This document shows, piece by piece, positions 21,046-38,733 of a stretch of 45,654 nt of DNA. Origin of the DNA: Kineococcus rubinsiae. GTDB taxonomy: Bacteria > Actinomycetota > Actinomycetes > Actinomycetales > Kineococcaceae. How positions within the stretch are numbered: the first letter of the stretch is position 1; the number at the start of each line of letters is the position of its first letter. The notes under the pieces were generated by a model, which saw only the letters and a list, made by a program, of their open reading frames with translations, ran no database searches and was not told the origin of the DNA. Position numbers and translations under genes: made by a program. The stretch is taken from positions 1 through 45,654 of the forward strand of contig NZ_VWPY01000035.1 of assembly GCF_011839805.1 (NCBI RefSeq). The letters are read 5' to 3'.

Positions 21046-21086
21046 CCTCCGTGATCATGCAGGTACTACCTGCATGATCACGGAGG
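21046..21086. terminator. Dispersed 41-nt palindrome, copy A, between convergent genes
   Basis: Perfect 20-bp arms: CCTCCGTGATCATGCAGGTA (21046-21065) and its reverse complement (21067-21086) around a single C. It fills the 54-bp gap between the LLM gene and the DUF3618 gene, whose stops converge on it, so a bidirectional terminator is likely. A second copy, 38 of 41 bases identical, lies at 38693-38733 in the same kind of position, showing that this is a repeated element and not a one-off hairpin. Confidence 0.85.
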
Positions 21087-21093
21087 GGTGGGG

Positions 21094-21441
21094 TCAGTCC
21101 TTCTTGCGCAGGACCAGCCAGACCGCCACGGTCGTGACCGCGACGACGGCCACGAGGAGCGCGGTGTTCTGCTGCTTCGGCGAACCGGGGGCCTTGTCGC
21201 TGGCCTCCTGGTAGCGGCCGAAGGCCTGCGCCTTGAGCTCCTGGGCGGAGTCGAGCGCCTGGTCCTTCTTCTCGCTGACGGCGACCTTGAGGTCGTCGAC
21301 CTTGTGCTGCGCCTGCGCCTTGACGTCGGCCTTGGCGGCCAGCGCGTCGGCCGTGGCCGCGAGGCGCTCGCGGGTCTCGATGATGTCCGCGACGAGGGCG
21401 TCGCGGTCGCCGGGGGGCGGGGTGCCGGGGGGAACGCTCAT
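21094..21441 (-). CDS. DUF3618 domain membrane protein
   Basis: 115 residues. The N-terminal RDALVADIIETRERLAATADALAAKADV is the DUF3618 signature, followed by a charged helical region (KAQAQHKVDDLKVAVSEKK) and one C-terminal membrane segment (TALLVAVVAVTTVAVWLVL) ending KKD. The likely topology is a cytoplasmic helix anchored by a tail. Role unknown; such genes are usually next to phage-holin-like genes as here. Its ATG overlaps the stop of that gene by four bases. A longer in-frame extension to 21603 would run antisense-like through the neighbour and is rejected. Confidence 0.9.
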   Translation of the reverse strand: MSVPPGTPPPGDRDALVADIIETRERLAATADALAAKADVKAQAQHKVDDLKVAVSEKKDQALDSAQELKAQAFGRYQEASDKAPGSPKQQNTALLVAVVAVTTVAVWLVLRKKD

Positions 21442-21911
21442 CGCTTGAGACCCTCTTTGACGGTGGCGGCGTCGGTCTTCAGACCGTCGATCGACGCCTG
21501 GGGCAGCGGCGGGGTGGCCTGGTCGAGCTCCTTCTTGCCGACCAGCGCGGCGACGCCGGCCAGGACGAGCAGGACGACCGCGACGATCAGCGCCGCGAGC
21601 CACCCGTCGACGGCGTGGGACAGGGCGAGGACCGCCGTGGCCACGAGGGAGCCGAGGGCGAAGAAGGCCAGCAGCCCGGCGGCGGAGAACGCCCCGAGGC
21701 TGAAGCCCGCCTTCTTGCCCTTGGCCTTGAGGTCGAGCTGCGCGACGGCGACCTCGTCGCGCACGAGGCGCGACATCTGCTGGGTGAGGTCGCTGACCAG
21801 CTGGCCGACCGTGGCGTCGGACGGGGCCGCGGGGGCGGACCCGCCGGCTGACTCGTCGCGGTGGACGCTGAGCCGGTGGGCCCCGGTGGTGGAGCTCGTC
21901 GGTGGGGACAT
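21438..21911 (-). CDS. Phage holin family (DUF1469-type) membrane protein
   Basis: 157 residues. A cytoplasmic part with TVGQLVSDLTQQMSRLVRDEVAVAQLDLKAKGKKAG is the signature of the Phage_holin_3_6/YqjE-like family; two hydrophobic hairpin segments follow (LGAFSAAGLLAFFALGSLVAT and WLAALIVAVVLLVLAGVAAL). Despite the family name, no phage genes are near; this is a chromosomal membrane protein of unknown role that typically pairs with DUF3618. ATG at 21911. Overlaps the next gene by ATGA. Confidence 0.88.
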   Translation of the reverse strand: MSPPTSSTTGAHRLSVHRDESAGGSAPAAPSDATVGQLVSDLTQQMSRLVRDEVAVAQLDLKAKGKKAGFSLGAFSAAGLLAFFALGSLVATAVLALSHAVDGWLAALIVAVVLLVLAGVAALVGKKELDQATPPLPQASIDGLKTDAATVKEGLKR

Positions 21912-21961
21912 GCTCCCTGTGTACCGCGCCGCCCCGCCTCCCGACACCCGAGACGAGGGCC

Positions 21962-23587
21962 TCACCCCATGTGCGGGTAGCCGTGCTCGGTCGCCGGCAC
22001 GAACGTCTCCTTGACCGCGCGGGGGCTCGTCCAGCGCTGCAGGTTCAGGATCGAGCCGGCCTTGTCGTTGGTGCCCGAGGCCCGCGAACCCCCGAAGGGC
22101 TGCTGCCCGACGACCGCACCGGTGGGCCGGTCGTTGACGTAGAAGTTCCCCGCCGCGAAGCGCAGCGCGGTGGACGCCTGCGCGACCGCGGCGCGGTCGG
22201 TGGCGATGACGGCGCCGGTCAGGCCGTACGGCGACCCCGCGTCGACGAGGCCCAGCACGTCCTCCCACGCGTCGTCCTCGTAGACGTGCACGCCGAGCAG
22301 CGGCCCGAAGTACTCCTCCCGGAACACCTCGTCCGCCGGGTCCTCGCCGAGGACGACCGTGGGGCGCACGAAGAACCCCTCGCTGTCGTCGTACGTGCCG
22401 CCCGCGGCCACGGTCAGGCCCGCGGTCGCGTGCGCCCGGTCGATCGCCGCGGCGTTCTTGGCGAAGGCCCGCCGGTCGATGACGGCGCCGCCGAAGTTCC
22501 GCAGGTCGCTGACGTCGCCGAACTCCAGGCCGTCCACGTCGGCGAGGAACTCCTCGCCCATGCGCGCCCACACCGAGCGGGGGACGAACGCGCGCGAGGC
22601 CGCCGAGCACTTCTGCCCCTGGTACTCGAACGCGCCGCGGAGCATCGCGGTGCTCAGCACGGCCGGGTCGGCCGAGGGGTGGGCCAGGACGAAGTCCTTG
22701 CCGCCGGTCTCACCGACGAGCCGCGGGTAGGTGCGGTAGGAGGAGATGTTCTGCCCCACCGTCCGCCACAGGTGCTGGAACGTCGCGGTCGAGCCCGTGA
22801 AGTGGATCCCCGCCAGGCGCGGGTCGGCGAGCAGGACGTCGGAGACGTCGCGGCCGTCACCCGTCAGCAGGTTGATGACGCCGGGCGGCAGGCCCGCGGC
22901 CTCGAGCAGGCGCATGGTCCAGTGCGCCGAGAGCGTCTGCGTCGGGCTGGGCTTCCAGACGACCGTGTTGCCCATGAGCGCCGGGGCCGTCGGCAGGTTC
23001 CCCGCGATCGCGGTGAAGTTGAACGGCGTGATGGCGTACACGAAACCCTCGAGCGGGCGGTGGTCGAGGCGGTTCCACACCCCCGGCGAGCTGATCGGCT
23101 GCTCGGCGACCAGGCGCCGGCCGAACTCCACGTTGAAGCGCCAGAAGTCGACGAGCTCGCACGGGGCGTCGATCTCCGCCTGCTGCGCGGTCTTCGACTG
23201 CCCCAGCATGGTCGCCGCGGCGATCCGCTCGCGCCACGGGCCGGCCAGCAGGTCGGCCGCGCGCAGGAACACCGCGGCCCGCTCGTCGTAGGACATCGCG
23301 GCCCACGCGGGGGCGGCGGCCGTGGCGGCGTCGGCCGCGGCCTGCGCCTCGGCGCGGGTGGCCGTGCCGAACGTCCCGAGGACGCTCGCGTGCCGGTGCG
23401 GCTGCACGACGTCGACGCGCTCCCCGCCGCCGAGCGTCTGCACGCCCCCGATGGTCTGCGTGAGCTCGACCGGGTTCGCGGCCTGCTCGGTCAGCTGCTC
23501 GGTGAGCCGCTTGCGCTCCGGGCTGCCCGGCGCGTAGGAGTGGACGGGTTCGTTGTAGGCGGCGGGCACCTGGGTCACGGACTGCAC
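21962..23587 (-). CDS. pruA: L-glutamate gamma-semialdehyde dehydrogenase
   Basis: 541 residues. Oxidises glutamate semialdehyde (P5C) to glutamate with NAD+, the second step of proline degradation. The aldehyde dehydrogenase motifs are LVGETGGKDFV (E293), YQGQKCSAASRAF (catalytic C327), AITPFNFTAIAGNLP, FTGSTATF and EEYFGPLLGVHVY; the N-terminal VPAAYNEPVHSYAPGSPER matches the monofunctional RocA/PruA group. GTG 23587 is chosen because GAGGAGG precedes it by five bases. It is 80 bases downstream of the proline dehydrogenase gene on the same strand, so both enzymes are made together. Confidence 0.97.
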   Translation of the reverse strand: MQSVTQVPAAYNEPVHSYAPGSPERKRLTEQLTEQAANPVELTQTIGGVQTLGGGERVDVVQPHRHASVLGTFGTATRAEAQAAADAATAAAPAWAAMSYDERAAVFLRAADLLAGPWRERIAAATMLGQSKTAQQAEIDAPCELVDFWRFNVEFGRRLVAEQPISSPGVWNRLDHRPLEGFVYAITPFNFTAIAGNLPTAPALMGNTVVWKPSPTQTLSAHWTMRLLEAAGLPPGVINLLTGDGRDVSDVLLADPRLAGIHFTGSTATFQHLWRTVGQNISSYRTYPRLVGETGGKDFVLAHPSADPAVLSTAMLRGAFEYQGQKCSAASRAFVPRSVWARMGEEFLADVDGLEFGDVSDLRNFGGAVIDRRAFAKNAAAIDRAHATAGLTVAAGGTYDDSEGFFVRPTVVLGEDPADEVFREEYFGPLLGVHVYEDDAWEDVLGLVDAGSPYGLTGAVIATDRAAVAQASTALRFAAGNFYVNDRPTGAVVGQQPFGGSRASGTNDKAGSILNLQRWTSPRAVKETFVPATEHGYPHMG

Positions 23588-23610
23588 GGCGGCCTCCTCG
23601 GCTCGGGGTG

Positions 23611-23661
23611 GGAGTTCGGGGTTCGGAGTTCTCGGGTTTCGGAGCTGGGGTCCCGGAGTTC
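23611..23661. repeat. GGAGTTC microrepeats between the two proline genes
   Basis: GGAGTTC occurs at 23611, 23625 and 23655, with a variant GGAGCTG at 23641, giving a spacing of 14 to 16 bases in the 80-bp gap. Looks like a low-complexity intergenic repeat; it may affect mRNA structure before the pruA ribosome binding site. No function can be assigned. Confidence 0.6.
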
Positions 23662-23667
23662 CAGGGA

Positions 23668-24594
23668 CTAGCGGGTGACCAGGGAGCGGGCGAAGAACGC
23701 GAGGTTCGCGGGCCGCTCGGCCAGGCGCCGGGAGAAGTAGCCGTACCAGTCGGTGCCGTAGGGCACGTAGACGCGGACGGTGTGCCCGGCGGCGGCGAGG
23801 CGCTGCTGCTCGGTTGTCCGGATGCCGAAGAGCATCTGGAACTCCATCGAGTCGGGCGTGCGGCCGAGGCTCTGCGCGAGGTCCTGCGCGATCTGCACCA
23901 TGCGCAGGTCGTGCGTGGCGACCATCGGGTAGCCCGCGCCCCCGAGCAGCACCTTCAGGCACCGCACGTAGGCCTTGTCGACGTCGGCCTTCGCGGCGTG
24001 CGCCACCGACGGGGGTTCGGCGTAGGCGCCCTTGACGAGGCGGATCCGGGAGCCGGCGACGGCCAGGTCGCGCGCGTCGCCCTCGGTGCGCAGCAGCGCG
24101 GACTGCAGCACGGCCCCGACGCGCGGGAACTCCGCCCGCAGCTCCCGCAGCGTGGTGAGCGTCGCGTCGACCGTCGTGTGGTCCTCCATGTCGAGGGTGA
24201 CGTCGACGCCCAGGCCGGTGGCGTGCGCGACGAGCTCCCGGGCACGCTCGGTGGCGCGGGCGGGCCCGTCGGCGCCCAGCGCCTGGCCGAGGGCGGACAG
24301 CTTCACGGAGACCTCGCCGCCCGCCGCGAGCCCGTCGGCGGCGAGCCGGTCGAGCAGCTGCCCGTAGCCCGCGAGGGTCTGCCCGGCCTGGGCGTCGTCG
24401 GTGATGTCCTCGCCGAGCCGGTCGAGGGTGACGCGCAGCCCCTGCCCGGCGAGCGCCCGCACGGCGGCGAGCGCCTGGTCGACGTCCTCGCCCGCCACGA
24501 AGCGGTCCACGACCCCGCGGCTGAGGCTGCTGCGGGTCACGGCCGCCCGCACGGCGGTGTTGCCGGCCACTCCCAGGAGCACCTGTCCGAACAC
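23668..24594 (-). CDS. Proline dehydrogenase
   Basis: 308 residues, the short monofunctional form. It oxidises proline to pyrroline-5-carboxylate with FAD. The blocks VSVKLSALGQ, VTLDMEDHTTVDATL, GSRIRLVKGAYAEP, PMVATHDLRMV and MEFQMLFGIRTTEQQRLAAAG with VRVYVPYGTDWYGYFSRRLAE are the family barrel strands including the proline-binding YxxRRxxE (here YFSRRLAE). GTG 24594 follows GGAGGAGG. First gene of the catabolic pair; divergent from a PucR-family regulator across 154 bp. Confidence 0.97.
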   Translation of the reverse strand: MFGQVLLGVAGNTAVRAAVTRSSLSRGVVDRFVAGEDVDQALAAVRALAGQGLRVTLDRLGEDITDDAQAGQTLAGYGQLLDRLAADGLAAGGEVSVKLSALGQALGADGPARATERARELVAHATGLGVDVTLDMEDHTTVDATLTTLRELRAEFPRVGAVLQSALLRTEGDARDLAVAGSRIRLVKGAYAEPPSVAHAAKADVDKAYVRCLKVLLGGAGYPMVATHDLRMVQIAQDLAQSLGRTPDSMEFQMLFGIRTTEQQRLAAAGHTVRVYVPYGTDWYGYFSRRLAERPANLAFFARSLVTR

Positions 24595-24698
24595 GTCGAC
24601 CTCCTCCGTCGGGGTGCGCCCCGGTGGAGGCGCTGGCACGACGCTAGGCCTGCCGGGGCGCCGGCGACAGGGACAGACGTCACGATCCGGCCGCACCT

Positions 24699-24718
24699 CG
24701 TCATCCACCTGGATGACG
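24699..24718. promoter_or_regulatory. Putative operator in the divergent proline region
   Basis: Inverted repeat CGTCATCC ACCT GGATGACG, perfect 8-bp arms and 4-base centre. It is 31 bases before the start of the PucR-type regulator and about 105 bases before the proline dehydrogenase start. A dyad in this place is the natural site for autoregulation by the neighbouring regulator, which in proline loci of Actinobacteria activates transcription in response to proline. No promoter hexamers were assigned. Confidence 0.6.
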
Positions 24719-24748
24719 GCGAACCGGTCCGCGCGGCAGACTGCCCTC

Positions 24749-25930
24749 GTGCCCACGCCACCCGCCGCGCCCCCGGCCGAGCTGCAGGAGCTCGTCGACG
24801 CCGTCGCGGAGGGCACGGGCGCCCCGGCGACGCTGGAGGACCGCGAGCTGCACCTGGTCGCCTCCTCGGGTCACGACGACGTCATCGACGAGGTGCGGCG
24901 CCGCTCGATCCTGCGCCGTCGCTCCTCCGCCGCCGTCCAGGAGCTGTTCGCCGGGTTCGGCATCGCGGGCGCCGACGCCCCGCTGCGCATCCCCGGGGAC
25001 CCGGCCGCGGGGCGCCTGCCCCGGTGGTGCGTCCCCGTCCGCTGGCGATCGGTCACCTACGGCTACCTCTGGCTGCTCGACCCCGACGCCCGCGTCACCG
25101 CGGCGGCGCTCGCCTCCGTGGCCGACGTCGTCGAGCAGGTCGCCGCGACCCTGGCCGTGCGCTCGCGGGCCCGCGACCGCTCCCGCTGGGCCGTCGGGGA
25201 GCTGCTGTCCGCCGACGCGGGGGCCCGGGCGGGCGCCGCCGAGGAGCTGGCGCGCGAGGGGCTGCTGCCCGGCGACGGCCGGCTCGTGGTGGTCGCGCTC
25301 GCGCCCGCCGACGGCGCGCCCGCGGGGCCCGTGAACTCGTGGCTGCTGCCCCGGGCGGTGCTCACCTCCCCCGTCGGCGGCCGCGCCGCCCTCGTCGTGC
25401 CCGCCGGCGACGACCCCGCGACGGAGGAGGACCGCGCGGCCCGCCTCGCGGCCCGCGCGGCGCAGACGCTGCTCGCCCAGCACCCCGCCGGGGTCGACGC
25501 CGGGGTGTCGGGCGTCGTCGCGGCCGACCGGGCCCACCTGGGCTGGCGGCAGGCCGACGCCGGGCTGCGGGCCGCCCGGCTGGCGCGGGGCACCGGACCG
25601 GCGGCGGAGCGGGGGACGGGCGAGGTCGACGTCCGCGCCTGGTCGGCGCTCGGCGCCCACCGCCTCCTGGCGCTCGCGGACGCCGACGGGCTGCGGGGCG
25701 CCGTTGTCGACGAGCGGGCCCGGCGCCTGCTGGCGGGGGACCCGGAGCTGCTGCGCACCGCGCGGGCCTACCTCGACCTCGCGGGCAGCGCCCAGCGCAC
25801 CGCCGCGAGCCTCTCGATCCACCGCCAGACGCTCTACCACCGGCTGCGGCGCATCGCCGACGTCACCGGCTACGACCTCGACGACGGCCGGGACCGCCTC
25901 GCCCTGCACCTGGCGCTCGTCCTGGGGTGA
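24749..25930 (+). CDS. PucR-family transcriptional regulator (probable proline catabolism regulator)
   Basis: 393 residues. The C-terminal PucR HTH_30 domain reads LLRTARAYLDLAGSAQRTAASLSIHRQTLYHRLRRIADVTGYDLDDG; the N-terminal ~130 residues hold a degenerate GAF-like sensor (LVASSGHDDV, VRWRSVTYGYLWLLD) and the middle a GGDEF-derived GAF-like segment common in the family. PucR-type regulators next to proline degradation genes (PutR) activate those genes with proline. GTG 24749 is the first reasonable start; no strong ribosome binding site precedes it. Longer in-frame starts upstream overlap the proline dehydrogenase gene. Ends 6 bp from the convergent Asp23 gene. Confidence 0.9.
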   Translation: MPTPPAAPPAELQELVDAVAEGTGAPATLEDRELHLVASSGHDDVIDEVRRRSILRRRSSAAVQELFAGFGIAGADAPLRIPGDPAAGRLPRWCVPVRWRSVTYGYLWLLDPDARVTAAALASVADVVEQVAATLAVRSRARDRSRWAVGELLSADAGARAGAAEELAREGLLPGDGRLVVVALAPADGAPAGPVNSWLLPRAVLTSPVGGRAALVVPAGDDPATEEDRAARLAARAAQTLLAQHPAGVDAGVSGVVAADRAHLGWRQADAGLRAARLARGTGPAAERGTGEVDVRAWSALGAHRLLALADADGLRGAVVDERARRLLAGDPELLRTARAYLDLAGSAQRTAASLSIHRQTLYHRLRRIADVTGYDLDDGRDRLALHLALVLG

Positions 25931-25936
25931 GGGCGC

Positions 25937-26374
25937 TCAGTCCCGCGGGTCGACGTCGGTGACGTGGACGTCCGCGCGGACCCCGTCCGCTCCGGGCGAC
26001 AGCGCCCCGAGCAGGACCGCGAGCTCGGCGACCACGGCGGCGCGGACCGCGGCCGCGACCTCGTGCAGCGACTCGCCGAAGCGCACCGAGAGCTCGACGA
26101 CGACCTGCTGCAGGACGTCCTCCTCGCCCGTCGTGCAGAGGATGCGCGCGGCCGTCGCGCCCGGGACCGCGTCGACCGCCGTCCGCAGCTGCGCCACGAC
26201 GACGTCGGACGCCACGAGGAAGTCGCCCAGGGCGTGCCGGCCGCGGACCGGCGCGGAGGGGCGGAAGGCCGCCGCGGCGCGCGCCAGCACCGCCTCGCGC
26301 ACCCCGGACCACGTGGAGTCGGTGTGCGCGCGCAGCAGACCCGTCGCCCGGGCGAGGTCCTCCTCCGCGCTCAC
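25937..26374 (-). CDS. Asp23/Gls24-like protein (paralog 1)
   Basis: 145 residues. The C-terminal half, VVVELSVRFGESLHEVAAAVRAAVVAEL and VRADVHVTDVD, is the Asp23/Gls24 pattern, alternating strands and a helix ending with a VxVxDV strand. The N-terminus is a helical region with a tryptophan. Asp23 proteins coat the inner membrane and support envelope stress tolerance. GTG 26374 begins 7 bases after the sigma-factor stop, so the two genes form an operon; the sigma factor may control the locus. The homology is moderate in this paralog. Confidence 0.75.
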   Translation of the reverse strand: MSAEEDLARATGLLRAHTDSTWSGVREAVLARAAAAFRPSAPVRGRHALGDFLVASDVVVAQLRTAVDAVPGATAARILCTTGEEDVLQQVVVELSVRFGESLHEVAAAVRAAVVAELAVLLGALSPGADGVRADVHVTDVDPRD

Positions 26375-26381
26375 GCGTGCC

Positions 26382-26993
26382 TCACCGCCATGCCGCGAGC
26401 GTAGTGACGAGCGAGGCGCGTGCCCGCTCGAGCAGGCCGCGCACGACCGTCGGGGTGACGTCGAGGACGGCCCCGACCTCCGCGTAGGACAGCTCCTCCA
26501 CCTCCCGCAGGATCCACGCCGAGCGCTGCCGCTCGGGGAGCAGGCGCAGGGCCGCGTCGAGGTCGGCCAGCAGCTGCCCCTCCTCGCTGACGCCCGCCGG
26601 GTCGGCGCGCGGGTCGACGGCGTCGACGAGGTCCGCCGGGTCCACCGCCCGCAGCTGCGGGCGGGTGCGGTTGCCCGCCGCGCGGCGCTGCTCGGCGAAG
26701 GCCTGGTGGCGCGCCAGCGTGAACAGCCAGGTGCGCACCGCGGCCTCGCCGCGGAAGGACGGCAGCCCGCGCCAGGCCGCGAGGAACGCCTCCTGCACGC
26801 AGTCCTCCGTGGCGCCGTCGTCGTGCAGGAGCCGGCGCGCGTAGCGGTGCAGCGCGGGCCCGTGCCGCTCGACGAGGGCCGCGAAGGCCCCGCGGTCGCC
26901 CATGGCCGCCCGGCGCGCGAGGACGTCGTCGTCGACCTCGGCGGCGTCCGCCGGAGCACCGGGGGCGCGCGCGACGAGGCCCCGACCGCGCAC
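26382..26993 (-). CDS. ECF-type RNA polymerase sigma factor
   Basis: 203 residues. Sigma region 2 is YARRLLHDDGATEDCVQEAFLAAWR with RGEAAVRTWLFTLARH; region 4 is LPERQRSAWILREVEELSYAEVGAVLDVTPTVVRGLLERARASL. No region 3 and no extra C-terminal domain, so a typical ECF factor of group 3/4 type. GTG 26993 directly follows GAGGAGGGTC and is preferred over an in-frame start at 27059. No zinc-binding anti-sigma gene follows; instead an Asp23-like gene starts 7 bases later. That pairing suggests it governs the Asp23 cluster at 27925-30463, which is inference. Confidence 0.92.
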   Translation of the reverse strand: MRGRGLVARAPGAPADAAEVDDDVLARRAAMGDRGAFAALVERHGPALHRYARRLLHDDGATEDCVQEAFLAAWRGLPSFRGEAAVRTWLFTLARHQAFAEQRRAAGNRTRPQLRAVDPADLVDAVDPRADPAGVSEEGQLLADLDAALRLLPERQRSAWILREVEELSYAEVGAVLDVTPTVVRGLLERARASLVTTLAAWR

Positions 26994-27133
26994 GACCCTC
27001 CTCGGGCGCGGGCCGCGGCCCCCGGTCCCGGAGGGCGCCCGCGCGAGACTGGATCGCACCAGCCCCGACCGTGATCGGCAACTCGGGCGGCTAGCGTGTC
27101 CGCGCGACCCGCCCCCACCCGAGGAGACCCCGG

Positions 27134-27775
27134 ATGCCCCACCTGCTGCAGCTCGACTCCTCCATCAGCGGGGCCGGCTCGAAGTCCCGGCAGCTCACCG
27201 CGGCCTTCGCCGACGCCTGGCGCGCCCGCGGCCCCGAGCACACCGTCACCCACCGCGACCTCACTGCGGACCCGCTGCCGCACCTGCTGGACAACGAGCT
27301 GCACTGGCCGCCGCACCTGCGCGCGCCCGGCGCGACGCCGCCCGCCGACGTCGAGGCCGTGCAGGCCGCGGTCATCGCCGAGCTGCTCAGCGCCGACGTC
27401 CTGCTCGTCGGGGCCCCGCTCTACAACTACTCGCTGCCCTCGACGCTGAAGGTGTGGGTCGACCACGTCCACGTCCCCGGTGTCACCACGCCCTTCGACG
27501 GCAGCGCCCAGCCGCTGGCCGGGCGCCCGGCCGTCGTGGTCTCCACCGCGGGCGCGACCTACGACGTGGGCTCACCGACGGCGGACTGGGACCACGGCGT
27601 CCCCGTGCTCGACATCGTCCTGGGGACCGCCTTCGGGATGCCGGTGACGGTCGTCAAGGCCACGCGCACCCTGGCCGCGCGCCTGGAGGGCATGGCCCCC
27701 GAGCGCACCCGCGCCGACGAGGAGTTCGAGGCGGCGCGCGCCCGCCTCGCGGAGCTGGGCGCGACCCTGGGCTGA
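27134..27775 (+). CDS. azoR: FMN-dependent NADH:quinone oxidoreductase / azoreductase
   Basis: 213 residues. The flavodoxin-like NAD(P)H-dependent fold is shown by HLLQLDSSISGAGSKSRQLT, VLLVGAPLYNYSLPSTLKVWVDHV and VVVSTAGATYDVGSP, which match AzoR. It reduces quinones and azo compounds using FMN and NADH, generally as a thiol- or quinone-stress enzyme. ATG with GAGGAG upstream. It separates the sigma factor from the Asp23 operon and points the same way as the latter, but a hairpin and 149 bp follow it. Confidence 0.93.
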   Translation: MPHLLQLDSSISGAGSKSRQLTAAFADAWRARGPEHTVTHRDLTADPLPHLLDNELHWPPHLRAPGATPPADVEAVQAAVIAELLSADVLLVGAPLYNYSLPSTLKVWVDHVHVPGVTTPFDGSAQPLAGRPAVVVSTAGATYDVGSPTADWDHGVPVLDIVLGTAFGMPVTVVKATRTLAARLEGMAPERTRADEEFEAARARLAELGATLG

Positions 27776-27777
27776 GG

Positions 27778-27791
27778 CCCCCGGACGGGGG
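27778..27791 (+). terminator. Weak hairpin after azoR
   Basis: CCCCC and GGGGG flank the 4-base GGAC, four bases after the azoR stop. A short GC-only stem that could be a terminator; no T-run. Confidence 0.4.
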
Positions 27792-27849
27792 TGTGGCGCA
27801 GGTCACGCGTCCTCGACCGTGAGGTTCGGGGCCGCAGCGACTCCCACCT

Positions 27850-27879
27850 GGTGACCGACCGCTGCGGCGGCCGGTCACC
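27850..27879 (+). promoter_or_regulatory. Inverted repeat upstream of the Asp23 operon
   Basis: GGTGACCG (27850-27857) and CGGTCACC (27872-27879) are exact inverted copies separated by 14 bases, ending 31 bases before the ribosome binding site of the first Asp23 gene. It may be an operator or a 5'-leader hairpin controlling the cluster. Confidence 0.5.
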
Positions 27880-27924
27880 CCGCCGGGCACCGGTGGGGCA
27901 ACCAGCGTCCGAGGAGCAGCCCCC

Positions 27925-28676: not shown

Positions 28677-28718
28677 CCTCCTTCCCCCCACCGCTCGTCC
28701 CTCGTCCCGGGAGCTCTC

Positions 28719-30495: not shown

Positions 30496-30509
30496 GGGCT
30501 CCCCGCTGC

Positions 30510-30540: not shown

Positions 30541-30568
30541 GTCGCGTCCGGGGACCGGGGACCTGAGC

Positions 30569-31051: not shown

Positions 31052-31060
31052 GCGGCGAGC

Positions 31061-31092
31061 TTACCTGATGCTGAGGTAACCTCACTGTGAGG
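31061..31092. promoter_or_regulatory. Nested palindromes, probable MarR operators
   Basis: Three dyads overlap here: TTACCT GATGCTG AGGTAA (31061-31079, arms of 6, spacer 7), GAGGTAACCTC (31073-31083) and CCTCACTGTGAGG (31080-31092). They occupy the short divergent region between the MarR gene start at 31051 and the ABC gene start at 31121. Dyads of about 18 bp are the usual targets of MarR dimers. They would block both promoters. Confidence 0.75.
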
Positions 31093-31120
31093 AGACCGCA
31101 CCGACCCAGGAGGTCCGCCC

Positions 31121-32938: not shown

Positions 32939-32945
32939 CCGGTCC

Positions 32946-34286
32946 TCAGCGGGCGCGACGCTCCGGGCCGTCGGAGCGCGGGGCCGCGGCCGTCGCGGCC
33001 CGCCGCAGGTCCTTGGCCACCGCGACGGCGTCGTCGACGCGGGCCAGGACCGAGCGGACGCCCGTGTCGAAGGACGCGCGGCACTCCGACTCCCGGGCCA
33101 GGACCACCCCGGCGCTGACGCCGACGAGCTGGTCGGCGTCGCGCCGCCCGCGGCTGGGCAGCGGGGCAGGCGGGACCCAGTCGGTGACGCGGGCCAGGAT
33201 GCCCGCGGCGTCGGCCTCGCTCAGCCCCGGCAGCACCACCGCGAACTCGTCGGCGCCCAGGCGGCCCGCCGTGGCCGACAGCGGCAGCTGCGAGCGCAGG
33301 TGCTCGGCGAAGGCGATGAGCAGCGCGTCCCCCGTGGGGTGGCCGTAGGAGTCGTTGACGGCGCGGAAGCCGTCGAGGTCCGCGGCCAGCACGCGCAGCG
33401 GCTCCCCCGACGCGGCCGCCTCCGCGAGCGCCAGGGTCAGCCGCTCCTGCAGGAGGCTGCGCGAGGCCACCCCGGTCAGGGCGTCGCGCTGCGTCGTCTG
33501 CACGCGCTGCGACGCGCGGGCCCGCAGGGCCCGGGTGGCGACCCGCAGCGAGTGCTCCAGCTCCCGCACGGGGGTCACGTCGCGCGAGACGAGGACCGCC
33601 CCCGCGACCGCGCCGTCGGCGTCCAGCAGGGCGCTCGCCGCGGCCACCAGGCGCAGCTCCCGCCCGTCCAGGCGCGTGGTGTCGATCTCGACGTCGCGCC
33701 ACGGGCGGCCGGCGCGGAAGGCCGCGAACATCGTCTCCAGGTGCAGCGCGAGGCGCGGCGGGTCGGCGCGGTACATCTCCGCGATGGGCCGCCCGACGAC
33801 GTCCGCGGCGCGCACGCCCCACAGCTGCTCGGCGCCCGCGTTCAGCGACCGCACCACGGCGTCGCCGTCGACCGTGACGATGGAGTCGCCGGAGTCCTCG
33901 AAGTGCCGCTCCAGCGGGCCGCGCCCGGCGACCGCGCGCAGGCAGCCCAGGTGCAGCGCCTCCCCGGCGGGACCCGTGGCGCTCCAGAGCGTCAGGTCAC
34001 CGGTGACCGCGGCCCCGTCGCGGTGGCGCAGCAGCACCCCACCCGCCGTCGATGTCAGGGGCCGGCCGACGAGGTCCTCGAGCGGGCGGCCGAGCGCGTC
34101 GGGCGCGGACCAGCCGAAGGTCGCGGCGGCCGCCGGGTTCCAGGCCAGCACGAGGCCCGCGTCGTCCACGGTCCAGGCCGGGTCGGGGAAGGCGGCCCAG
34201 ACGTCGACGAGGTGCTGCGGGGCGTCGAGGTGCTGGGGCCCGTCGAGGTGCTGCGGCGCGTCGAGCGCCGGGGGCGAGGTCTGCAC
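32946..34286 (-). CDS. PAS-PAS-GGDEF protein with degenerate GADEF motif
   Basis: 446 residues, no membrane segment. Two PAS domains: residues ~28-115 (FPDPAWTVDDAGLVLAWNPA) and ~125-245 (FEDSGDSIVTVDGDAVVRSLNA), the second with a PAC strand. The GGDEF domain starts at about 265 (DALTGVASRSLLQERL), keeps DLDGFRAVNDSYGHPTGD but reads RLGADEFAVVLPG (344-348) in place of GGDEF, so Ala replaces the second Gly. Activity is therefore uncertain; it might be a GTP-binding sensor. An N-terminal hexapeptide repeat precedes PAS 1. GTG 34286 follows GAGGAGGTGG by about 7 bases; an in-frame start at 34355 is less likely. Confidence 0.88.
   Translation of the reverse strand: MQTSPPALDAPQHLDGPQHLDAPQHLVDVWAAFPDPAWTVDDAGLVLAWNPAAAATFGWSAPDALGRPLEDLVGRPLTSTAGGVLLRHRDGAAVTGDLTLWSATGPAGEALHLGCLRAVAGRGPLERHFEDSGDSIVTVDGDAVVRSLNAGAEQLWGVRAADVVGRPIAEMYRADPPRLALHLETMFAAFRAGRPWRDVEIDTTRLDGRELRLVAAASALLDADGAVAGAVLVSRDVTPVRELEHSLRVATRALRARASQRVQTTQRDALTGVASRSLLQERLTLALAEAAASGEPLRVLAADLDGFRAVNDSYGHPTGDALLIAFAEHLRSQLPLSATAGRLGADEFAVVLPGLSEADAAGILARVTDWVPPAPLPSRGRRDADQLVGVSAGVVLARESECRASFDTGVRSVLARVDDAVAVAKDLRRAATAAAPRSDGPERRAR
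34209..34262 (-). repeat. Three-copy 18-bp tandem repeat in the GGDEF gene
   Basis: Codons 9-26 encode three hexapeptides D-A/G-P-Q-H-L in a row (DAPQHL, DGPQHL, DAPQHL). The 18-bp units are nearly identical at the DNA level, so length could vary between strains. It lies between the start and the first PAS domain and would make a flexible linker. Confidence 0.85.
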
Positions 34287-34403
34287 GTCCCGTCCACCTC
34301 CTCGTCGTCGTGCGGGTCCGTCGAGGGAGTCATCGGCGCGCGCGGGCGCCGGCACGAGCAGCCGAACGGGTTGCTCCCGGCCCTGCCCGCAGCCGGCGCC
34401 TGC

Positions 34404-34967
34404 TCAGCCGGCGGCGGGCAGGCCGGGGAGCGCGGCGAGGACCTCCTCGACGTCGGGGGGCACGACGCCCATCGACGCGCTCATCCACAGCCCGTCGCCG
34501 ACGAGCTGCACGACCCGCGACAGCGCCCGGTCGCCCAGCTCCTCCTCGATGGCCACGCGCCACGCCTCGGAGATCTCGGTGAAGGCCTCCACCGCGCGGC
34601 GGTCGGCGTCCTGGACCAGGCGCAGGGCGGCGATGGTCGCGCGCTGCAGCGGGTCGCCCGAGGCGACCACGGACGTGCGGACGTAGTAGCGCGCCGCGCC
34701 CTCCGGGGCCGAGCGCATGCGGGCGAGGTCCTCCTGCGCGAGCGTGCGCAGGCGCCCGAGCAGGCCCTCGACGAGGGCGTCCTTGGTGCCGAAGTGGTAG
34801 AGCAGCCCGCCCTTGGAGACGCCGGCGGCCGCGGCCACCGCGTCCAGGGTCGCGGCGCGCGGGCCGGCCTCGGCGAGCAGCTGCTCGACCGCGTCGAGCA
34901 GGCGGTCCCGGGTGGAGCGGGCCGCGGTGGTGGCGGCGTCGGGAGCGGAGGGCGTGCGGGACGGCAT
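34404..34967 (-). CDS. TetR family transcriptional regulator
   Basis: 187 residues. The N-terminal HTH reads TRDRLLDAVEQLLAEAGPRAATLDAVAAAAGVSKGGLLYHFGTKDALVEGLL, a canonical TetR DNA-binding domain with recognition helix ending YHFGTKDAL. The C-terminal ligand domain resembles TetR_C drug-efflux regulators. ATG 34967 has no ribosome binding site. Divergent from a DHA2 exporter over 87 bp with a palindrome (34996-35009), so it most likely represses that exporter and itself. The last residues PGLPAAG are close to the stop. Confidence 0.94.
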   Translation of the reverse strand: MPSRTPSAPDAATTAARSTRDRLLDAVEQLLAEAGPRAATLDAVAAAAGVSKGGLLYHFGTKDALVEGLLGRLRTLAQEDLARMRSAPEGAARYYVRTSVVASGDPLQRATIAALRLVQDADRRAVEAFTEISEAWRVAIEEELGDRALSRVVQLVGDGLWMSASMGVVPPDVEEVLAALPGLPAAG

Positions 34968-34995
34968 GGGAAGAGGTTAAGGACTCGGACCGTTG

Positions 34996-35009
34996 ACCGT
35001 CCAGACGGT
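34996..35009. promoter_or_regulatory. Probable TetR operator
   Basis: ACCGTC CA GACGGT, a perfect dyad with 6-bp arms, inside TTGACCGTCCAGACGGTACA (34993-35012). Operators of this form are common before DHA2 exporters controlled by TetR regulators. It is 28 bases upstream of the regulator start and 45 before the exporter start, so one site can govern both. Confidence 0.75.
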
Positions 35010-35054
35010 ACAGTCGTGCCCACCCCCCGCCGACCCGCACGCAGAGACGACGAG

Positions 35055-36662
35055 ATGACCCCGCCCTCCCCGACCAGCGCCCCCCGACCCGACCCGCGCC
35101 TCGACGCACCCGCCGCCGCCCCCGCGAAGGCCACCGCCCGCCAGTGGGCCGCCCTCGCCGTGCTCGTGCTGCCCGTGCTCCTGGTGTCCGTCGACACGAC
35201 GGTCCTGAGCTTCGCGCTGCCCTTCATCAGCGAGTCCCTCGCGCCGAGCGGCACGCAGCTGCTGTGGATCGTCGACGGCTACTCCCTGGCGATCGCGGGG
35301 CTGCTGGTCCTCATGGGCACGCTCGGCGACCGCTTCGGCCGCCGCCGCCTCCTCGTCGTCGGTGGCGCGGGCTTCGGCGTCGTCTCGCTCCTGGCCGCCA
35401 CGGCCGACTCCGCGGAGGGGCTGGTCGCCGCCCGCTTCGCCCTCGGCGTGTTCGGCGCGACCCTCATGCCGTCGACGCTGTCGCTGCTGCGCAGCACCTT
35501 CACCGACCGCGAGCAGCGGCGCACGGCCTTCGCCGTCTGGGCCGGGGGCTTCGCCGGTGGTGCCGCGCTCGGCCCGATCGTCGGCGGCTGGCTGCTCGAG
35601 CACTTCTGGTGGGGCTCGGTCTTCCTGCTCAACGTGCCCGTCATGGTGCTGCTGCTGGTGCTCGCGCCGATCCTCGTCAGGGAGAGCCGCGACCCGGCCC
35701 CGGGGCGCGTGGACCTGCTCAGCGCGGCCGTGTCGATCCTCGCCATGGCCGGGGTCGTCTACGGCATCAAGGCCCTGGCCGACGCGGGGCCGAGCCTGCC
35801 CGCCGTCGCGGCGCTCGTCGCCGGCGTCGCGCTCGGCGTGCTGTTCGTGCGGCGGCAGAACACCCTGGCCGACCCGATGCTGGACGTCGCCCTGTTCCGC
35901 ATCCCGGTCTTCCGCACGGCCGTGCTGGCGAACCTCATGAGCATCCTCGGGATGACGGGGATGCTGTTCGCGACGTCGCAGTACCTGCAGCTCGTCCTGG
36001 ACCTGCGGCCTGTACCCGCGGGCCTGCTGCTGCTGCCGGGCGCCGTCGGCTCGATCGTCGCGGGCCTGCTCGCCGCACGCCTCGCGCGCCGGTTCCGCCT
36101 CGACCTGCTCATCGCCACGGGCCTGCTGCTGGGCAGCGCCGGGTACGTCGTCGCGGCCTTCCTCGGCTCGGGGGACGCGGTGCGCGGCGCGGTCCAGCTG
36201 GCGCTCGCCTTCGTGCTGCTCTCGGCCGGGGCGGGGCTCGCCGAGACCCTCACCAACGACGCGATCCTCTCCACCGCCCCGCCGGAGCGCTCCGGCGCGG
36301 CCTCGGCGATCTCCGAGACGGCCTACGAGGTGGGCGCGGTGCTCGGCACCACGCTGCTCGGCAGCCTGCTCAACGCGGTCTACCGCTCGCAGGTCCAGCT
36401 GCCCTGGAACCTCGGCGGCGGCGAGGGGGACGCGGCCCGGGAGACCCTCGGCGGCGCGGTCGACCTCGCCGGCCGGCTGCCCGCGGGCGCGGGCGGGCCG
36501 GAGCTGCTGGCCAGCGCCCGCGAGGCGTTCAGCGCCGGGCTCGACGTCACGGCCGCGGCGGGCGTGGCCCTCACGGCGGCGGCCGCGCTGGTCGTCTGGC
36601 GGCAGCTGCGGCCCGCGGCCCGGTCCGGTGCCCGGGAGGTGGCGGAGCCGGTGCGCGCGTAG
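35055..36662 (+). CDS. DHA2-family MFS exporter (QacA/SmvA-like)
   Basis: 535 residues with about 14 hydrophobic segments. Motif DTTVLSFALPFISESLAPSGTQLLWIVDGYSL at segment 1 and GTLGDRFGRRRLLVVGG (motif A) in the first loop are characteristic of the QacA/Smv type; GVFGATLMPSTLSLLRSTF and GGFAGGAALGPIVGGWLLEHFWW are motif C-like. It exports cationic drugs or dyes with protons. ATG 35055 after a weak GAGACGACGAG. The ORF is open far upstream into the antisense of the TetR and GGDEF genes, which is ignored. Transcription likely repressed by TetR. Confidence 0.94.
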   Translation: MTPPSPTSAPRPDPRLDAPAAAPAKATARQWAALAVLVLPVLLVSVDTTVLSFALPFISESLAPSGTQLLWIVDGYSLAIAGLLVLMGTLGDRFGRRRLLVVGGAGFGVVSLLAATADSAEGLVAARFALGVFGATLMPSTLSLLRSTFTDREQRRTAFAVWAGGFAGGAALGPIVGGWLLEHFWWGSVFLLNVPVMVLLLVLAPILVRESRDPAPGRVDLLSAAVSILAMAGVVYGIKALADAGPSLPAVAALVAGVALGVLFVRRQNTLADPMLDVALFRIPVFRTAVLANLMSILGMTGMLFATSQYLQLVLDLRPVPAGLLLLPGAVGSIVAGLLAARLARRFRLDLLIATGLLLGSAGYVVAAFLGSGDAVRGAVQLALAFVLLSAGAGLAETLTNDAILSTAPPERSGAASAISETAYEVGAVLGTTLLGSLLNAVYRSQVQLPWNLGGGEGDAARETLGGAVDLAGRLPAGAGGPELLASAREAFSAGLDVTAAAGVALTAAAALVVWRQLRPAARSGAREVAEPVRA

Positions 36663-36733
36663 CGTCGGCGCTCCGTCCACCGTCTCCCGTCTCGGACCCG
36701 CCGTCCCGCGTCCGCCGTCCCCCGGAGGAAGCC

Positions 36734-37180
36734 GTGCCGAAGAAGTCGCCGTCGCCGAAGGTCACCAAGGCCGGTCACGCCCGCCAGTCGGAGCTGCCCA
36801 GCACGCTGCAGCGCTCGGACACCAAGGCGCAGGACACCTACGCCAAGGCCCACGACTCCGCGGCCGAGTCCTACGACGGCGATGAGCAGCGCGCGAACCG
36901 CGTCGCGTGGGGCGCGGTCAAGCACACGCACGAGAAGGTCGGGGACCACTGGGCGCCCAAGGAGGGCGGCCGCAAGGGTCCCTCCGACCCGCAGTCCGAG
37001 GGCGGCGCGGACACGGACCGCCGCTCCTCCGGCGGCGTGGACGAGGGGGCGACCAAGAGCCACCTCCTGGACCTGGCCCGCGAGGCCGACGTGAAGGGCC
37101 GCTCCTCGATGAGCAAGGCCGAGCTGGTCGAGGCGCTGCGCAAGGCCAACGACAAGGCGACCGCGGAGGCCCGCTCCTGA
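36734..37180 (+). CDS. ChaB-like protein with Rho N-terminal-type C-terminus
   Basis: 148 residues. The front half (QSELPSTLQRSDTKAQDTYAKAHDSAAESYDGDEQRANRVAWGAVKHTHEKVGDHW) is the ChaB fold, and the last 40 residues (TKSHLLDLAREADVKGRSSMSKAELVEALRKA) resemble the SAP/Rho-N domain that binds nucleic acid. GTG 36734 is preceded by GGAGGAA. Very lysine-rich relative to its neighbours. ChaB was named as a regulator of cation transport in E. coli, but the role of two-domain actinobacterial forms is unknown. Ends 10 bp from a convergent gene. Confidence 0.88.
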   Translation: MPKKSPSPKVTKAGHARQSELPSTLQRSDTKAQDTYAKAHDSAAESYDGDEQRANRVAWGAVKHTHEKVGDHWAPKEGGRKGPSDPQSEGGADTDRRSSGGVDEGATKSHLLDLAREADVKGRSSMSKAELVEALRKANDKATAEARS

Positions 37181-37190
37181 CGCGACGCCG

Positions 37191-37817
37191 TCAGGAGGCT
37201 TGAGCGGACCCGCCGAACAGGGCGGCCGCGAGGCGCGCGTGCGCCGCGTGCAGCTCCCCGGCCTGCCGGGCGGAGCGCTCCAGCAGCTCGCCGAAGGCCG
37301 CGGCGCGCAGCTGCGGGTGGGCCGCGGCCCGGTCGCCCAGCACGCGCCACACGGCTTCGCGCCGGCGCAGGGACGCCTCCAGCGCCTCGAGGTCCAGCAG
37401 GACCTGCACGGCGCTGCGCCGGGGCGCCGCGGCCGCCGGGACCCGGTCCAGCACGGGCAGCCGCTGCAGCAGCGGCGCGAGCTGCCCGACGCGCGCGGAC
37501 GCCCAGGTCAGCCCGAGCACGGCCCAGTCGGTGCCGATGCCGAGGTCGCGCATGACGGCCCGCAGCGCCGCGCGGTCGGCCGCCACCTCGCGGCGCAGCC
37601 GCAGCAGCGCGTCCCGCTCGGCGCCCAGCTCCTCGGAGCGGGCGGCGCGGCGCAGGTCCGCGGCGAGCGACCCGGCGGCCGCCAGGTGCTCGTTGAGGTA
37701 GACCGCGAGCGCCGGGTCCACGGGCGCGGGGGTCGCCGGGGCGGCAGCCGTCGGGCGTGCGGCGGGTGGCGCCGGTGGGCGGCGCAGGCGCAGCACCGGG
37801 GTGGGCACGCGGAGCAC
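37191..37817 (-). CDS. Unrecognised helical protein with conserved HLAAAG-type N-terminus
   Basis: 208 residues. I do not know a named family. After a Pro/Ala-rich leader of 34 residues comes YLNEHLAAAGSLAADLRRAARSEELGAERDALLRLRREVAADRAALRAVMRDLGIGTDW, then a second helical part with LEALEASLRRREAVWRVLGD. The paired helices with H, E and D at regular positions resemble ferritin-like folds, and I recall uncharacterised actinobacterial proteins of this kind. GTG 37817 has GAGGAGG five bases upstream. Divergent from the PilZ gene over 224 bp. Confidence 0.7.
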   Translation of the reverse strand: MLRVPTPVLRLRRPPAPPAARPTAAAPATPAPVDPALAVYLNEHLAAAGSLAADLRRAARSEELGAERDALLRLRREVAADRAALRAVMRDLGIGTDWAVLGLTWASARVGQLAPLLQRLPVLDRVPAAAAPRRSAVQVLLDLEALEASLRRREAVWRVLGDRAAAHPQLRAAAFGELLERSARQAGELHAAHARLAAALFGGSAQAS

Positions 37818-37929
37818 GGGAACCTCCTCGGTCCGGTCAGGGCGGCGCCGACGCTACCGGCGGCCGGGCCCGGCGGCACCGCCGGACCCGTCCACCCGCG
37901 CCGCAGAGCGTCACGGCTCGCCTCCCGGG

Positions 37930-38008
37930 CGAACGGGTGACCTGCGGCGTTCGGATGGAGTCACCCCCGTTCGTGACGTAGCGTGTGCGCGTGGTCACTC
38001 GAATGACC
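37930..38008. promoter_or_regulatory. Cluster of related dyads upstream of the PilZ gene
   Basis: CGAACGGGTGACC (37930-37942), GTCACCCCCGTTCGTGAC (37960-37977) and GGTCACTCGAATGACC (37993-38008) share the half-site GTCAC and a CGTTCG/CGAACG core. The last is an imperfect 16-bp dyad with perfect GGTCA/TGACC arms. Similar motifs are seen in my memory before motility and PilZ genes of motile Actinobacteria, perhaps for a shared regulator; identity unknown. They lie between the divergent unrecognised gene and the PilZ gene. Confidence 0.55.
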
Positions 38009-38041
38009 GCAACGGTGCGAGGACCTGAGACGGGGGCACGG

Positions 38042-38686
38042 ATGAACGGTGCGCAGGGCAGCCTGCTCATGACGGAGGGACCAGCCGTCGACACGATGGT
38101 CACCCTCATGCCGACCTCGTCGGCGACCGTGCACACCGCGACCGTGCGGTCGTGGACCGCGAGCGCCGCCGGCCTCGTCGTCACCAGCTACGTCAGCGCC
38201 ACCCCGGAGTCCGTCGCGGCGCTCGACGGGCAGCGCGTCTGGGTCAGCACCGAGGCCCAGGAGGACGGCTCCGTCGTCCCGCACGCCGTCTTCCAGGCCG
38301 TCGCCCAGGCCCACCGCGACGACGAGCTGGCGCTGACCGGCGTCATGCTGCTGGCCGCGGAGACGCGCCGCGGCGCGGTCCGCGCCACGACGTCCGTGCC
38401 CGCGCACCTGAGCACCCCCACGGGCGACAGCGACGCCGTCACCGTCGACATCTCCCGCACCGGCGTCCGGCTCGAGGGCCGCTTGCTGCCGCGCGCCCAC
38501 GAGGAGGTCGACCTCTCCCTCGACCTCCAGGAGGGGGTCGAGGTCCGCGCCCGCGGCGAGGTCCTGCGCGTGGACGAGTCCACGGGCGAGGCCGTCGTCC
38601 GCTTCGTCTCGCTCGACCGCGATGCCGCGGACGCCCTCGAGCGCAGCGTCCTCATCGAGCTGGCGCGCCAGAACCGCGACGACTGA
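38042..38686 (+). CDS. PilZ domain protein (putative c-di-GMP receptor)
   Basis: 214 residues. N-terminal beta domain resembling YcgR-N (VTLMPTSSATVHTATVRSWTASAAGLVVTS), then the PilZ domain with R109-R110-G-A-V-R114 for the RxxxR loop and VDISRTGVRLEG (about 135-146) for the D/NxSxxG motif. The architecture is like YcgR/FlgZ proteins, which bind cyclic di-GMP and slow the flagellar motor or control exopolysaccharide. ATG 38042 is preferred since the in-frame GTG at 37985 would lie on the regulatory dyad; GGGGG before it is a weak ribosome binding site. Partners may be the GGDEF proteins in this window. Confidence 0.88.
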   Translation: MNGAQGSLLMTEGPAVDTMVTLMPTSSATVHTATVRSWTASAAGLVVTSYVSATPESVAALDGQRVWVSTEAQEDGSVVPHAVFQAVAQAHRDDELALTGVMLLAAETRRGAVRATTSVPAHLSTPTGDSDAVTVDISRTGVRLEGRLLPRAHEEVDLSLDLQEGVEVRARGEVLRVDESTGEAVVRFVSLDRDAADALERSVLIELARQNRDD

Positions 38687-38692
38687 CCCGCC

Positions 38693-38733
38693 CCTCCGTG
38701 ATCGTGCAGGTACTCCCTGCATGATCACGGCGG
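38693..38733. terminator. Dispersed 41-nt palindrome, copy B, between convergent genes
   Basis: Left part CCTCCGTGATCGTGCAGGTA (38693-38712) and right part CCCTGCATGATCACGGCGG at 38715-38733. It matches copy A (21046-21086) at 38 of 41 positions; the changes are A to G at base 12, A to C at 23 and A to C at 39. The first is compatible with G-T pairing, the others give mismatches, so the copy is slightly decayed. It lies between the PilZ and cca stops and would end both transcripts. Confidence 0.85.

What the first reader, a model, noticed from the sequence alone, without database searches (positions are those of the whole stretch)
21046..38733. Nearly identical 41-nt palindrome at two convergent gene ends
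Seen in sequence: CCTCCGTGATCATGCAGGTA with its reverse complement (perfect 20-bp arms around one base) at 21046, and a copy 38 of 41 identical at 38693. Both fill the space between two genes whose stops converge, at a distance of 17.6 kb. Ordinary terminators have no reason to share sequence so closely. This suggests a family of dispersed palindromes (REP-like or terminator modules) with a preserved core TGATCATGCAGG rather than only a preserved stem. It could be a site recognised by a protein, a mobile palindromic element, or a terminator spread by copying.
Basis: partly seen in the sequence, partly recalled or inferred. Interest (0 to 1): 0.72.

Follow-up and report, generated by a model that had tools for sequence, protein, structure and literature searches.

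The report
REP-like hairpin family at gene ends
Two near-identical DNA palindromes in this bacterium belong to a family of over 50 alike hairpins that sit just behind genes, probably help end transcription, appear to spread by copying, and differ from species to species.

Summary
The two palindromes (38 of 41 identical) belong to a family of at least 54 hairpins in this 4.88-Mb genome, consensus CCCNCC-GTGATCATGCAGG-N5-CCTGCATGATCAC-GGNGGG. Congeners and other actinomycetes carry related hairpins that keep CCGTGATC..GATCACGG around a genome-specific inside. The rule is not 'between convergent genes' (25 of 54; 25 tandem) but 'just behind a stop codon' (48 of 54 within 30 nt of a gene 3' end). 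Position, compensated pair changes, and related hairpins with other insides at some of the same gene ends in other species argue for a 3'-end hairpin, probably a two-way terminator, although there is no U-tract. Copying is inferred from a one-arm defect shared by 6 of 52 hairpins, nested hairpins in congeners, and lack of a recognisable family hairpin at most orthologous ends of the closest relative. A RAYT transposase (PF01797) was not found in 15 of 15 genomes tested. RAYT-less REPs (CGTC type) are in print for five other phyla, so this is a REP-like variant in actinomycetes, not a new category. Terminator function, the reading factor and the copying agent remain unshown.

The parts
21045..21087 (.). 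Hairpin element 1 (core 21051-21081, outer stem about 6 nt each side); perfect palindrome over 21046-21086
   Evidence: member of A1/A2; CM hit G000:C48:21043-21089; RNA fold -47.9 kcal/mol, z -7.05 for 21036-21110
38692..38734 (.). Hairpin element 2 (core 38698-38728); left arm GTGATCGTGCAGG, right arm (reverse complement) GTGATCATGCAGG
   Evidence: CM hit G000:C48:38690-38736; RNA fold -40 kcal/mol, z -6.55 for 38684-38745
19990..21039 (+). Gene ending 11 nt before core 1: luciferase-like monooxygenase (PF00296)
21094..21441 (-). Converging gene ending 12 nt after core 1: DUF3618 protein (PF12277)
38042..38686 (+). Gene ending 11 nt before core 2: PilZ-domain protein (PF07238)
38735..40276 (-). 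Converging gene ending 6 nt after core 2: poly(A) polymerase head / CCA-adding-enzyme-like protein with HD domain (PF01743, PF12627, PF01966)

Best explanation
A dispersed, REP-like family of palindromes of about 43-46 bp. Transcribed, each can fold into a roughly 19-20-bp hairpin, usually 5-25 nt behind a stop codon, where it most likely ends transcription or fixes the mRNA 3' end; being palindromic, one copy can serve both strands between convergent genes. Copies appear to spread within a genome as a hairpin-sized unit, so hairpins of one genome resemble each other more than those at orthologous gene ends of sister species. The copying agent, and whatever reads CCGTGATC..GATCACGG, are unknown; no Y1/RAYT transposase was found. 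Shown by sequence: the family, its position, its pairing, presence/absence and different insides between species, shared defects. Inferred: terminator function, mobility, and a factor recognising the outer GTGATC.
For: Copy number: 69 exact 13-mers, reversed control 0; 54 hairpins read. Position: 48 of 54 within 30 nt of a called gene 3' end, against 41% of 1180 random placements in gaps of 43 nt or more; all 13 '++' cores lie 6-18 nt and all 12 '--' cores 12-23 nt behind the upstream stop; 3 of 54 divergent, whereas 71 of 191 other gaps of 40 nt or more are divergent. Other lineages: 0 of 20 hairpins from four genomes divergent, 13 of 20 within 30 nt; 1 of 34 selected named-genome hairpins divergent, 27 of 34 within 30 nt (my recount of its list). 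Pairing: 42 doubly changed cells against 20.1 +/- 3.1 in shuffles, 0 of 500 reaching it. Same gene ends with other insides, by a fixed rule: G001 4 of 37, G002 3 of 43, G003 5 of 32; binomial P 2e-4, 2e-4, 3e-6, and 0.02, 0.01, 0.002 if the genome-wide rate is four times higher (gene numbers assumed). Copying: the arm pair GTGATCTTGCAGG/GTGATCATGCAGG recurs in 6 of 52; L045 and L048 share 24 nt of left flank, 6 of them outer stem; in G005 a complete hairpin with its outer C/G stem sits between the arms of another, and in G009 a composite occurs at two loci.
Against: No U-tract: mean 1.67 T (maximum 4) in 108 tails of 12 nt, about what the mean A or T frequency of 12.3% in the non-coding DNA read would give. 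In tandem sites, mismatches readable as G-U in the transcript do not clearly exceed those readable as A-C (6 versus 5, or 6 versus 3 without L248), so selection on the RNA strand alone is not shown. Pairs are not all kept: the third outer pair is unpaired in 16 of 52 and the outermost in 26 of 52. No target duplication was recognised in the empty/filled comparisons (by eye). Most orthologous ends in relatives have no recognised family hairpin (40 of 43 in G002, 27 of 32 in G003, 33 of 37 in G001 by the rule), so the slot is not strictly required. G009 hairpins lie further from stops (3 of 5 read are 40-109 nt away). No expression data exist here. Three flank pairs, not one, reach 17 of 20 identities; two of them are mainly G-runs and a stop codon.
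Confidence: 0.6

Rival explanations
1. A DNA-level protein-binding palindrome (nucleoid or chromosome-organising site, or a site read by a termination factor), kept alike by selection at each site, not by copying.
For: Outer CCGTGATC is shared by several actinomycete families whose insides differ; 15 columns are invariant in 52 of 52; G-U shows no clear excess over A-C.
Against: The inside is uniform within a genome yet different in sister species; a one-arm mismatch shared by 6 hairpins is odd for a symmetric binding site; the tight spacing to stop codons is not expected for a pure architecture site.
Confidence: 0.17
2. A member of an already described REP class: either GTAG REPs moved by a RAYT (Y1 HUH) transposase that was lost or is too divergent to see, or CGTC REPs, which are reported to lack a dedicated transposase.
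For: Short extragenic palindromes in many copies, species-specific sequence, composites in G009, as described for REPs (passages of PMC3733652, PMC3116915, PMC1525189). CGTC REPs have 4-5-nt loops and no dedicated transposase. Seven of 54 hairpins here have CGTC exactly at the foot of the outer stem on one side, where a shuffle mean of 9.05 over all registers suggests about one.
Against: PF01797: no match in G000 or in 14 of 14 other genomes, control positive in 5 of 14. GTAG in 0 of 108 flanks of 14 nt; CGTC anywhere in 13 of 108, 54 of 500 shuffles reach that. The seven share a C-rich stretch CGTCCCC, so the tag may be composition. The paper lists CGTC repeats in five phyla, actinobacteria not among them.
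Confidence: 0.13
3. Ordinary intrinsic terminators that look alike because of base composition and a common stem preference.
For: They lie where terminators lie, and C-rich/G-rich stems also stand at several gene ends of relatives.
Against: A 13-nt A/T-containing core identical in tens of copies with reversed control 0; in the 449 kb of this genome read, no other non-coding 14-mer occurs in more than 3 places; the orthologous hairpin core CACCCCCGGACC is not dispersed.
Confidence: 0.06
4. A virus-borne or plasmid-borne mobile hairpin.
For: Patchy distribution within the order (31 of 396 genomes).
Against: Viral contigs: 88 stretches matched; of the 80 read, 9 pair above 85%; eight of these are 28 nt long and one (L396, 37 nt) is a well-paired hairpin that I did not follow. 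Phage and plasmid collections were not searched.
Confidence: 0.03

Closest known systems
GTAG REPs / BIMEs / REPINs with RAYT transposases
   Same: Short palindromes, mostly extragenic, tens of copies, often behind genes, species-specific sequence, composites in one congener; proposed roles in termination and mRNA stability (passages of PMC3733652, PMC3116915, PMC1525189)
   Different: No Y1/RAYT gene in 15 of 15 genomes tested; no GTAG tag (0 of 108 flanks); near-perfect 19-20-bp stems; mostly single hairpins in the window genome (one close pair, C2:137306 and 137359)
CGTC REPs (PMC3733652, passages read)
   Same: No dedicated transposase; short stem with loops of 4-5 nt; some hairpins here have CGTC at the foot (7 of 54)
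   Different: Not reported there in actinobacteria (five phyla named); most hairpins here lack the tag; stem sequences were not compared
Bidirectional intrinsic terminators
   Same: Stable hairpin directly behind stops, shared by two convergent genes, compensated changes (compare PMC5381666 on B. cereus, passages read)
   Different: No U-tract; sequence shared between non-homologous gene ends
Terminators built from DNA uptake sequences (Neisseria, Haemophilus; recalled, not tested)
   Same: A repeated sequence doubling as terminator stem
   Different: No uptake role known here; lone exact arms are few (3 of 44 sites)
MITE-like palindromic elements (Correia/NEMIS, RUP; recalled, not tested)
   Same: Small non-coding repeats able to insert and fold
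   Different: Only 43-46 bp; no parent insertion sequence or target duplication recognised

Membership tests
REP (general) | Short extragenic palindrome in many copies | tested here: met
   43-46 bp, 54 copies read, 1 of 54 inside a called gene
GTAG REP / RAYT system | Associated Y1 (HUH) RAYT transposase gene | tested here: not met
   PF01797: 0 of 1 and 0 of 14 genomes; control positive in 5 of 14
GTAG REP / RAYT system | GTAG tag unpaired at one end | tested here: not met
   0 of 108 flanks of 14 nt
CGTC REP | CGTC tag unpaired at one end | tested here: inconclusive
   13 of 108 flanks hold CGTC, shuffles mean 9.05, 54 of 500 at least 13; 7 of them in one register at the foot of the outer stem, each on one side of one hairpin; 47 of 54 hairpins lack it there
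CGTC REP | Stem sequence of the described CGTC-1 to CGTC-4 families | not tested
   Consensus sequences of the paper were not compared
REP (general) | Dimers/BIMEs in alternating orientation | tested here: inconclusive
   One close pair in G000; composites in 4 of the 5 G009 hairpins read; the palindrome is too symmetric to assign orientation
Intrinsic transcription terminator | Stable hairpin just downstream of genes | tested here: met
   48 of 54 within 30 nt of a gene 3' end; mean fold -37.9 kcal/mol
Intrinsic transcription terminator | U-tract behind the hairpin | tested here: not met
   Mean 1.67 T per 12 nt, maximum 4, in 108 tails; the consensus scan did not call the two window sites
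Intrinsic transcription terminator | Transcripts end there | not testable with these tools
   No RNA data
Mobile palindromic element / MITE | Empty orthologous sites | tested here: met
   No family hairpin by the rule at 40 of 43 orthologous ends of G002, for example the PilZ junction and L059 versus L297; loss in G002 instead of gain here is not excluded
Mobile palindromic element / MITE | Target-site duplication or exact junctions | tested here: inconclusive
   Flanks too diverged (by eye); an exact unit is seen only in the nested case of G005 (L086)
Mobile palindromic element / MITE | Parent element encoding the transposase | not tested
   Only Y1 transposases (PF01797) were sought

The most novel reading that the evidence does not exclude
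Mobile terminators: actinomycetes carry families of self-spreading hairpins, marked by an outer CCGTGATC..GATCACGG and a fast-changing inside, that insert behind stop codons, sometimes into the centre of existing hairpins, and so refit the 3' ends of many genes, driven by an enzyme unrelated to RAYTs. Several further hairpin families may be doing the same in G001.
Probability: 0.33. Interest if true: 0.8.

Novelty: new variant of a known kind. Interest (0 to 1): 0.56.

Why it matters
How actinomycetes end transcription without U-tracts is poorly understood (general knowledge, no call), and here a defined, repeated hairpin at gene ends can be tested directly. If copying is real, gene ends are being refitted with one hairpin type per species. 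RAYT-less REPs have been described elsewhere without a known mover (PMC3733652); this family, with a constant outside and a species-specific inside, offers a fresh way to look for one and to separate what is read by a mover from what serves the host.

Tried and rejected
Tried and rejected: Rfam gave no relevant family (E up to 1, window 20900-38900). RAYT/Y1 was sought twice with no match. The idea that the other hairpin at the PilZ junction of congeners is dispersed too was tested with CACCCCCGGACC and failed: 0-13 copies per genome in 11 genomes, reversed control 2-7. A viral origin was not supported, one hairpin (L396) left open. The G-U versus A-C test was uninformative. An exact search of the named genome collection for GTGATCATGCAGGN5CCTGCATGATCAC gave 0 stretches; the tool may leave out the window's own genome. 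Papers: motif and topic searches listed no paper that I recognised as describing this family, 20 of 45 hits were listed, 12 of 297. Passages only were read of PMC3733652, PMC5381666, PMC3116915 and PMC1525189.

Limits of the counts: the covariance search scored at most 150 candidates per genome and its listing was cut, so its numbers are lower bounds; I read 54 sites. A1 holds 41 hairpins. A2 holds 52 of 54; L246 and L249 were dropped because of deletions. One weak match (L052:678) and three lone arms (C45, C66, C83) were dropped. Of G003 gene ends 33 of 37 located were fetched and 32 anchored; of G002 47 located and 43 anchored; of G001 43 matches and 37 anchored. By eye I had first counted 5, 5 and 6 family hairpins at the ends of G001, G002 and G003 and tested these with denominators 37, 47 and 37; the rule gives 4, 3 and 5, which I now report. 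The random placements include gaps that hold hairpins. The tandem group includes L248 and lacks L246. Gene calls are my own codon-model calls trained on this genome, also used for the other genomes.

Changed on checking: I learned that RAYT-less REPs are in print, so I raised that rival a little, and lowered interest, the best explanation and the novel reading a little.

Full report
What was claimed and what is there. The window holds a perfect palindrome at 21046-21086 and a 38-of-41 copy at 38693-38733, each in the short space between two converging genes. The neighbours are ordinary: luciferase-like monooxygenase and DUF3618 at the first, PilZ protein and a poly(A) polymerase/CCA-enzyme-like protein at the second.

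The family in this genome. The 13-mer GTGATCATGCAGG occurs 69 times exactly in 4.88 Mb, its backwards control 0 times. Reading the 44 sites gave 41 hairpins with at least one exact arm and three lone arms. A covariance model of the 41 found 115 matches, both strands counted, in this genome; from its cut listing I took 13 more sites, 54 in all. Consensus: CCCNCC GTGATCATGCAGG N5 CCTGCATGATCAC GGNGGG.

Sequence and pairing are both kept. On 52 hairpins the doubly changed cells number 42 against 20.1 +/- 3.1 in shuffles, 0 of 500 reaching it; A-U to G-C changes occur in 10 hairpins at one core pair and 4 at another; the third outer pair is G-C in 18, U-A in 16 and unpaired in 16. Yet 66 of 104 arms are exactly GTGATCATGCAGG.

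Position. Of 54 sites 25 are convergent, 13 '++', 12 '--', 3 divergent and 1 inside a called gene. All 25 tandem cores lie 6-23 nt behind the upstream gene's stop. 48 of 54 have a gene 3' end within 30 nt, against 41% of 1180 random placements in gaps of 43 nt or more. Of 20 hairpins of G009, G042, G111 and G033 none is divergent and 13 lie within 30 nt of a 3' end; of 34 selected ones of named genomes 1 is divergent and 27 lie within 30 nt; G009 hairpins tend to lie further away. This is where terminators lie, but there is no U-tract.

Relatives. Ten other genomes of the genus have at most 4 copies of TGATCATGCAGG, but the model has matches in 8 of them at E up to 0.1. The ones read keep the outer GTGATC (or GTGGTC) and have another inside: GTGATCTTCCACGGTGCACC in G003, GTGATC..GC.GGG in G001, GTGATC(A/G)AGCACT in G009, GTGGTCGTGCCGG in G002. 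In the order, 31 of 396 genomes match CGTGATCNNGCN(6-34)GCNNGATCACG; seven, this one included, have 11-74 sites; the backwards control is 0 in the listed rows; several genomes with one or two matches look like chance. In a phylum sample 11 of 296 match, with more than one site only in G000 (33), G012 (3) and G417 (2). Named genomes with well-paired hairpins include Kineosporia, Kineosporiaceae MAGs, Bailinhaonella, Actinomadura and Streptosporangiales MAGs.

Same slot, other hairpin. At gene ends orthologous to hairpin-bearing ends of this genome, related hairpins with other insides stand in G001 (4 of 37), G002 (3 of 43) and G003 (5 of 32) by a fixed rule. This is above their genome-wide rates (P 2e-4, 2e-4, 3e-6), and more weakly so (0.02, 0.01, 0.002) if those rates are four times what the capped search showed; gene numbers were assumed. 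The first window hairpin is such a slot: G001 has GTGATCCCGCTGGGAGACCCAGCGGGATCAC there, and G002 an imperfect GTGGTC-type hairpin seen by eye; the second has no such hairpin in G001, G002 or G003. In G001 91 gene ends of 30 loci were checked: five of six flagged GTGATC-type matches belong to three orthologous junctions, and the sixth looks false. Most orthologous ends carry no recognised family hairpin.

Copying. Six of 52 hairpins share the same one-arm mismatch, GTGATCTTGCAGG opposite GTGATCATGCAGG, and in 11 of the 22 hairpins with unequal arms both arms occur in other hairpins, as expected if whole hairpins or arms are copied. L045 and L048 share 24 nt of left flank including 6 of stem; two further pairs score as high over 20 nt but mainly through G-runs and a stop codon. 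In G005 a complete hairpin with its own outer C/G stem sits between the arms of another (L086); in G009 a composite occurs at two loci. No duplication of target sequence was recognised.

Mechanism. Most likely a two-way terminator or 3'-end hairpin that spreads as a unit. A Y1/RAYT transposase was not found in 15 of 15 genomes. The constancy of CCGTGATC suggests that something reads it, either the copying enzyme or a termination or DNA-binding factor; this cannot be decided here. The missing U-tract and the lack of a clear G-U excess are the main points against a simple intrinsic terminator.

Comparison. It resembles REP elements in anatomy and place, but the GTAG tag and RAYT are absent. CGTC REPs are described as lacking a dedicated transposase and were named in five phyla, not actinobacteria (PMC3733652, passages). 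Here CGTC stands at the hairpin foot in 7 of 54 hairpins, more than expected for one register but in the minority and inside C-rich sequence, so membership stays open. It works like a terminator by position and fold. I call it a new variant of a known kind.

Noticed in passing
L368 (G001:C1 near 3440816), L483 (near 3389898): A second hairpin sequence at two gene ends of G001: GCGGAAACAACACTTTCCGCCCT with its reverse complement.
   Followed up: partly
L362, L372, L376 (G001): A third hairpin sequence at gene ends of G001: GATCGTTGCCTCC with its reverse complement, in 3 of 30 loci, so possibly many copies in that genome.
   Followed up: partly
L367, L374 (G001): A fourth repeated hairpin, CTGGGGAGCTT.CCACCCTTC.. 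with a near reverse complement, at two gene ends of G001.
   Followed up: partly
L042, L050, L058, L065, L071, L072:4635, L073 (G000): CGTC directly at the foot of the outer stem, on one side of each of 7 of 54 hairpins, recalling the tag of CGTC REPs.
   Followed up: partly
window 8704-8741: A 19-bp-arm hairpin without loop (95% complementary) 16 nt behind the stop of the minus-strand gene 8758-10257, unrelated in sequence to the family.
   Followed up: no
window 36734-37180: ChaB-domain protein with a possible Rho N-terminal domain (PF07498, 24.3 bits, just below the curated cut-off of 24.9).
   Followed up: no
L066 and L072 (G000): A 17-nt sequence CAGCGGAACTGTCAGCC repeated in non-coding DNA of two loci.
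   Followed up: no
L158, L164, L172, L179 (Nonomuraea): Nonomuraea hairpins have constantly unequal ends (CCGTGATCNNGCAGT.. / ..ACTGCCGGATCACGGAAGA).
   Followed up: no
L396 (viral contig), 13087-13123: A well-paired 37-nt hairpin CGTGATCTCGCTGATCGGGCAGATCAGCGAGATCACG in a viral contig.
   Followed up: no
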